The translations under genes were made by a program, and so were the position numbers. Shown one piece after another: positions 14,038-14,267 of a stretch of 64,000 nt of DNA (position 1 is the stretch's first letter; every line of letters starts with the position of its first letter). The DNA is from Zonotrichia leucophrys gambelii (Eukaryota > Chordata > Aves > Passeriformes > Passerellidae): assembly GCF_028769735.1 (NCBI RefSeq), contig NC_088188.1, forward strand, positions 1,116,001-1,180,000, given 5' to 3'. A model generated the notes under the pieces. The model made no database searches and was not told the origin of the DNA. It saw nothing but the letters and a program-made list of their open reading frames with translations.

Positions 14038-14110
14038 GTCCTTTTGTTGTATTTTCATTGAGGTTTAATAAACTTTTGAAAATTTCCAAAGTGAGCAGTT
14101 GTTTCTCCCA
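14038..14110 (+). mobile_element. LTR, family L, sense: right part, ending 13 bp before the CALN1 exon
   Basis: Continues the interrupted LTR: GTCCTTTTGTTGTATTTTC, an AATAAA signal (14067-14072), AAAGTGAGCAGTTG and the terminal GTTTCTCCCA. The intact copy at 15230-15284 ends AAAGTGATCAGTCG / GTTTCTCACA, and the antisense copy starts TGAGAAATGATCCTCAC, so the terminus at 14110 is supported by two independent copies. Only TTTCCCTCCGCAG separates it from the exon. Confidence 0.85.
14067..14072 (+). promoter_or_regulatory. Sense AATAAA polyadenylation signal in the LTR
   Basis: AATAAA in transcript orientation, 52 bp upstream of a CALN1 coding exon; the R-region signal of the family L LTR. Activity is not shown by the sequence. 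Confidence 0.6.
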
Positions 14111-14123
14111 TTTCCCTCCGCAG

Positions 14124-14267
14124 AGATCCGGGAGGCTTTCCGAGTGCTGGACCGGGATGGGAATGGCTTCATCTCCAAGCAGGAGCTGGGCATGGCCATG
14201 CGCTCCCTGGGCTACATGCCCAGTGAGGTGGAGCTGGCCATCATCATGCAGCGCCTGGACATGGATG
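14124..14267 (+). CDS. CALN1: CALN1 (calneuron-1) internal coding exon with EF-hand 1
   Basis: A 144-bp internal exon. The acceptor is TTTCCCTCCGCAG (14111-14123) and the donor is GTGAGT at 14268. It opens with the last two bases of a Glu codon, encodes 47 complete residues beginning IREAFRVLDRDGNGF, and ends with the first base of a Gly codon. The loop DRDGNGFISKQE is a canonical 12-residue EF-hand with D, D, N and E at calcium-coordinating positions. It is followed by the helix LGMAMRSLGYMPSEVELAI and the start of the second loop (DMD). From family knowledge, calneurons are neuronal, Golgi- and membrane-associated, high-affinity Ca2+ sensors that inhibit PI4-kinase IIIbeta at resting calcium. 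Residues such as FRVLD, ELGMAM and ELAIIMQ fit CALN1; CABP7 (calneuron-2) has FKVFD and ELGTAM. The exon is intact. Oddly, an old LTR ends only 13 bp before it. Confidence 0.97.

What the first reader, a model, noticed from the sequence alone, without database searches (positions are those of the whole stretch)
14038..14130. CALN1 EF-hand exon takes its 3' splice-site neighbourhood from an endogenous retroviral LTR
The L-family LTR terminus (GTTTCTCCCA, 14110) is 13 bp from the first exon base. A branch point must lie further upstream than that, so it has to be in LTR-derived DNA; only the final TTTCCCTCCGCAG can be ancestral. The end of the LTR is fixed by two other copies in this window (15275-15284 and, inverted, 41166-41180). 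A constitutive exon of a conserved neuronal gene would therefore be spliced with TE-derived signals.
Basis: partly seen in the sequence, partly recalled or inferred. Interest (0 to 1): 0.8.

Follow-up and report, generated by a model that had tools for sequence, protein, structure and literature searches.

The report
Retroviral LTR abuts CALN1 splice site
In this bird-like genome an old retroviral repeat sits 13 bases before a coding exon of the brain gene CALN1, so part of the signal that tells the cell where to splice that exon most likely comes from the repeat; a canary gene model suggests the canary carries the same insertion.

Summary
A sense-oriented LTR (12879-14110, split by a younger LTR at 13352-14037) ends 13 bases before CALN1 exon 3 (14124-14267). 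A tail profile from the two other window copies alone hits 14036-14109 (E 5e-7); 0 of 2000 shuffles match either copy as well. The family's end is fixed twice over: CR1-like flank at 15286 and a perfect 4-bp target duplication around copy 3. By the published AG-exclusion rule the branch point lies in about 14084-14110, all LTR, with one TNA motif (A14094). The LTR also gives about half of the pyrimidine tract.

New: an 18-nt pyrimidine run abuts the LTR's other end, so it probably landed inside the old tract, making a strong-looking decoy acceptor at 12886. A canary gene model reads LTR sequence (12986-13058), then the LTR terminus (14095-14112), then exon 3, so canary very probably shares the insertion. 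'Constitutive' is not shown: three mammalian models skip the exon in frame. Use in RNA could not be tested. New variant of a known kind: transposon-derived splice signals, here replacing those of a conserved exon.

The parts
12861..12878 (+). 18-nt pure pyrimidine run abutting the LTR 5' end; probable upstream part of the old exon-3 pyrimidine tract
   Evidence: 495 of 63982 positions are preceded by 18 pyrimidines, 466 of them in three tandem-repeat regions
12879..13351 (+). 5' part of LTR copy 1 (TGTTACAG...)
12885..12886 (+). AG of a composite decoy acceptor (old pyrimidine run plus LTR start)
   Evidence: score 10.23, rank 41 of 4928 AGs with a recalled matrix
13352..14037 (-). nested younger LTR; 4-bp target duplication GTCC at 13348-13351 and 14038-14041
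14042..14110 (+). 3' part of LTR copy 1, ending GTTTCTCCCA
14067..14072 (+). AATAAA polyA signal of the sense LTR
14084..14110 (+). region that the AG-exclusion rule allows for the branch point; only TNA motif AGTGAGC (A14094)
   Evidence: rule from PMC1431707
14111..14123 (+). TTTCCCTCCGCAG, host-derived end of the intron (first 4 bases probably the target-site copy)
14124..14267 (+). CALN1 exon 3, EF-hand coding, 144 nt
30532..30644 (+). CALN1 exon 4, used as control acceptor
14862..15284 (+). LTR copy 2, in CR1-like DNA
41166..41575 (-). LTR copy 3, flanked by GTTT on both sides

Best explanation
A solitary-looking LTR inserted, in the gene's own sense, into the pyrimidine tract of the 3' splice site of CALN1 exon 3. 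The last 13 intron bases stayed beside the exon; the old branch point and most of the old pyrimidine tract were moved more than 1.2 kb upstream. The exon is still spliced because the LTR's 3' end offers a branch-point-like TGA and a pyrimidine-rich stretch that, joined to TTTCCCTCCGCAG, make a working acceptor. Shown: the LTR boundary, sense orientation, intact exon, AG geometry, and LTR sequence beside exon 3 in a canary gene model. Inferred: landing inside the old tract, use of an LTR adenine, continued exon inclusion.
For: Tail HMM without copy 1 hits 14036-14109, E 5.2e-7; 0 of 2000 shuffles for each copy; LTR end fixed by CR1-like flank in copy 2 and by a 4 of 4 target duplication in copy 3. 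The AG-exclusion rule (PMC1431707 and PMC2991248, passages) puts the branch point in 14084-14110. Joining the flanks gives 31 nt, pure pyrimidine up to the final GCAG. Exon 3 residues unchanged in 20 of 20 bird CALN1 models I picked from the listings; 8 of the 9 that I recall as passerines join exon 2 to exon 3 normally. Canary P0114: residues 1-24 map to 12986-13058 in the LTR, AVVSPI to 14095-14112 (one exact match in six frames), then PSAEIREAF.
Against: No lariat reads, RNA-seq or orthologous DNA were reachable; the genome search did not complete. The LTR's branch-point motif (AGTGAGC) is weak beside exon 4's three TCTGA motifs. Copy 1's own target duplication is imperfect (3 of 4). The intron end of an LTR-free bird was not seen as DNA. 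Exon 3 skipping is annotated in mammals, so full inclusion here cannot be assumed. The passerine models with normal joins may lack the LTR and may be homology-based.
Confidence: 0.77

Rival explanations
1. The LTR weakened the acceptor, and exon 3 is now partly or mostly skipped in LTR-bearing birds. Skipping is in frame (48 codons) and yields a CALN1 without its first EF-hand, so the insertion was tolerated for that reason and not because the LTR rescued splicing.
For: Exon 3 is 144 nt and three mammalian models join exon 2 to exon 4; weak branch-point motif; sense polyA signal and decoy acceptor nearby.
Against: Acceptor 14123 ranks 31 of 4928 AGs (recalled matrix); the exon is unchanged in 20 of 20 bird models, which argues for use; the canary model includes it.
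Confidence: 0.13
2. The LTR really ends before about 14095, and the branch-point region is host sequence that resembles the LTR by chance or by drift.
For: Copy 1's target duplication is 3 of 4 only; copies differ by 26-40%.
Against: AGTGANCAGTYGTTTCTC is shared base by base with copy 2, the profile runs to position 77 of 78, and copies 2 and 3 end at the same place by two independent criteria.
Confidence: 0.06
3. A distant branch point upstream of the LTR is used for 14123.
For: Distant branch points exist (PMC1431707, passages).
Against: AGs at 14091, 14095, 14098 and many more lie between; that paper's rule excludes it.
Confidence: 0.02

Closest known systems
LTR78/AluJ pseudoexon of human F8 (PMC7951965, passages read)
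   Same: An LTR supplies branch-point and pyrimidine-tract sequence to an acceptor, and an older LTR is combined with a younger element.
   Different: There an antisense LTR makes a new disease pseudoexon; here a conserved host exon keeps its own AG while its upstream signals appear replaced by a sense LTR.
Exonized LTRs of human genes, e.g. IL22RA2 (PMC2008291, abstract read)
   Same: LTR sequence takes part in splicing of a host gene.
   Different: Those LTRs become exon; here the LTR stays intronic in the normal reading.
TE under-representation zones near exons (PMC3088655, passages read)
   Same: Describes this place: TEs within 20 bp of exons avoid acceptors; LTR zone 2 kb in human, 1 kb in mouse.
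   Different: This is a survivor of the class that is selected against; the paper covers mammals, not birds.

Membership tests
LTR of an endogenous retrovirus | TG...CA termini shared by several copies | tested here: met
   Starts TGTTACAG, TGTTATAG, TGTGACAG; ends CCCA, CACA, CTCA
LTR of an endogenous retrovirus | target-site duplication | tested here: inconclusive
   4 bp: copy 3 GTTT/GTTT 4 of 4, copy 1 CTTC/TTTC 3 of 4, copy 2 GGGG/CGGG 3 of 4. Met for copy 3, not decisive for copy 1 because its flanks are pyrimidine-rich
LTR of an endogenous retrovirus | promoter and polyA signals inside | tested here: met
   Copy 1 has TATAAA 13257 and AATAAA 14067; copy 2 only TATAAA 15134; copy 3 only AATAAA 41206
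Named avian LTR family | match to a curated repeat consensus | not testable with these tools
   No repeat library held; no match in viral contigs or genome contigs
CALN1 (calneuron 1) gene | exon peptides match CALN1 rather than CABP7 | tested here: met
   Exon 3 peptide is contained unchanged in proteins named calneuron 1 / calcium-binding protein 8; best solved structure is CABP7, 2lv7
TE-derived 3' splice signal | branch-point region and part of the pyrimidine tract lie in TE sequence | tested here: met
TE-derived 3' splice signal | the signal is used in RNA | not testable with these tools
   No transcript data held

The most novel reading that the evidence does not exclude
The LTR both replaced and duplicated the splice signal. 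Its tail is a ready-made branch point plus half tract that rescues exon 3, while the old branch point and tract, fused to the LTR's first bases, form a second acceptor at 12886. In canary the two LTR halves are joined into an LTR-encoded N-terminus spliced into the LTR tail just upstream of exon 3, giving a short CALN1 form without exons 1-2, in frame there because one base is missing relative to this window.
Probability: 0.15. Interest if true: 0.75.

Novelty: new variant of a known kind. Interest (0 to 1): 0.55.

Why it matters
Insertions this close to an acceptor are the kind that selection removes in mammals (PMC3088655, passages). A survivor in a conserved neuronal calcium-sensor gene, probably shared by at least two species, is a natural test of how much of a 3' splice site a mobile element can replace, and of whether the ends of this LTR family carry usable branch-point and pyrimidine signals from the start.

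Tried and rejected
Looked for more LTR copies in public collections (viral contigs, genome contigs): 0 matches, as expected for a vertebrate element. A fourth tail motif at 21276-21289 minus (0 mismatches to the pattern) shows no LTR similarity that I could see upstream and was dropped. Exon peptide in viral contigs: 12 pattern matches, none confirmed. Bird models that run into exon 3 from elsewhere (Eudromia P0093, Phasianus P0094, Colinus P0125) might show the LTR-free intron end, but the two galliform ones disagree with each other, so I did not use them. The protein search for read-through in the window's own frame gave no further LTR-reading model among the 120 rows shown of 468. By hand I first misread the flanks of copy 3; one search showed a perfect 4-bp duplication. 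Acceptor and donor matrices, the name CR1 for the 12 kb / 14 kb / 49 kb repeats, the passerine and galliform labels, and the species type of the window (bird, passerine) are recalled or inferred and come from no call.

Full report
What is there. The window holds two intact CALN1 exons on the plus strand: exon 3, 14124-14267, and exon 4, 30532-30644. The exon 3 peptide matches EF-hand families in Pfam (PF13405, E 4.1e-10). A search with the recalled human protein returned 545 proteins at E 1e-20 or better; of the 120 rows listed many are named calneuron 1 or calcium-binding protein 8. In 20 of 20 bird CALN1 models that I picked by name from the listings the 47 exon-3 residues are unchanged; three bird CABP7 models were left out of that count.

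The LTR. Three copies of one LTR family were found in the window: 12879-14110 (copy 1), 14862-15284 (copy 2; scripts used 14864) and 41575-41166 on the minus strand (copy 3). They are far diverged: 231 of 357 aligned bases for the 5' part of copy 1 against copy 2, 46 of 62 and 40 of 67 for its tail against copies 2 and 3, 238 of 394 for copy 2 against copy 3. Copy 1 is split by a second LTR, 13352-14037, with GTCC on both sides; that family's other copy is at about 44560-45180 (547 of 616 aligned bases). The finding's start, 14038, is the first base of the right-hand GTCC.

Where it ends. A profile of the LTR tail built from copies 2 and 3 only hits copy 1 at 14036-14109 with E = 5.2e-7. Local alignment scores of 31.0 and 31.5 were reached by 0 of 2000 dinucleotide shuffles each. 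Copy 2 lies in CR1-like DNA that resumes at 15286, matching 12166-12259 and 49879-49910. Copy 3 has a perfect 4-bp duplication, GTTT. Beyond 14110 the match stops: 2 of 13 and 6 of 13. Against this, copy 3 is two bases shorter, and the duplication of copy 1 is 3 of 4 (CTTC/TTTC) in pyrimidine-rich flanks, where that says little.

Branch point. PMC1431707 (passages) defines the AG exclusion zone and searches about 15 bases further upstream; PMC2991248 (passages) finds candidates up to 7 or 8 bases upstream. For acceptor 14123 the zone is 23 nt and the search region 14084-14110. All of it is LTR. It holds one TNA motif, AGTGAGC at A14094 (30 nt from the exon), and adenines at 14088-14090, 14097 and 14110. 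Exon 4, the control, has three TCTGA motifs. In the tract 14099-14121, 12 of 23 bases are LTR. One difference from copy 2, C for A at 14108, removes a purine from the tract; the canary model's proline at that codon (CCN) fits the same base.

The empty site. The 18 bases left of the LTR, 12861-12878, are all pyrimidines; 495 of 63982 positions have that property, 466 of them in three tandem-repeat regions. Joined to TTTCCCTCCGCAG they give an ordinary acceptor. The simplest history is insertion inside the tract; this is an inference made after seeing the run. A side effect is a composite acceptor, CCCTTCTGTTACAG at 12886, ranking 41 of 4928 AGs against 31 for 14123 and 9 for exon 4 (recalled matrix). 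Read from exon 2 in frame it would meet GAT GGA TAA (bases). The sense LTR also brings AATAAA at 14067 and a donor-like AAA|GTGAGC.

Canary. The model P0114 (A0A8C9MMN6, Serinus canaria) begins MSPVLPTVPSPPCTVAIRQPGLSR, then AVVSPIPSAEIREAF. Its first 24 residues map to 12986-13058, in the 5' part of the LTR, in two overlapping pieces (9 of 12 and 13 of 16 identical, E 1.3e-9; 1.0e-8 with the whole protein). AVVSPI is read at 14095-14112, the one exact match in six frames of the window. Frame changes between the pieces imply one base fewer in canary at two places. So canary very probably holds both LTR parts, in order, beside exon 3. This is a database model; I do not know whether RNA supports it, and I saw no canary DNA. 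No second such model was seen in the 120 rows shown of 489 or of 468.

Is exon 3 constitutive? Three mammalian models that I read, P0108, P0110 and P0112, skip it in frame. Of the 20 bird models, 14 join exon 2 to exon 3 as expected and 6 do not, canary among them.

In print. PMC3088655 (passages) reports that TEs within 20 bp of exons avoid acceptors and that LTRs have the widest avoided zone. PMC7951965 (passages) describes an LTR giving branch point, tract and acceptor to a pseudoexon. PMC1794541 (passages) names polyA and splice signals as reasons why sense ERVs are lost from introns. PMC2008291 was seen as abstract and PMC2911107 as passages. In nine searches, of which I saw titles and openings of abstracts of the rows listed, I recognised no case of an LTR replacing the upstream signals of a conserved exon; they cover only the open library.

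Noticed in passing
window 14704-14769: A Turdus rufiventris CALN1 model (P0226) continues after exon 3 into a stretch that this window encodes downstream (GMDHPLWDTAG, 11 of 11 residues).
   Followed up: partly
window 44560-44620 minus and 15264-15284: The nested LTR family's copy at 44560 ends AAGTGATCAGCGTTTCTCA, nearly the terminus of the other LTR family, and both show 4-bp duplications, so the two families may be related.
   Followed up: partly
window 21276-21292 minus: GGATCGTTTCTCACA, an LTR-tail motif without visible LTR similarity upstream.
   Followed up: partly
window 61360-61432 plus: Rfam tRNA match, 42.8 bits.
   Followed up: no
window 14088-14096: Donor-like AAA|GTGAGC inside the branch-point region, rank 45 of 2835 GTs with a recalled matrix.
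   Followed up: no
window 2632-3114, 5501-5914, 23689-24326: Pyrimidine-rich tandem repeats around and between the CALN1 exons.
   Followed up: no
window 31030-31124 and 52715-52801: A Zonotrichia CALN1 model (P0083) ends in a peptide that the window encodes in two places, so it is probably a repeat.
   Followed up: no
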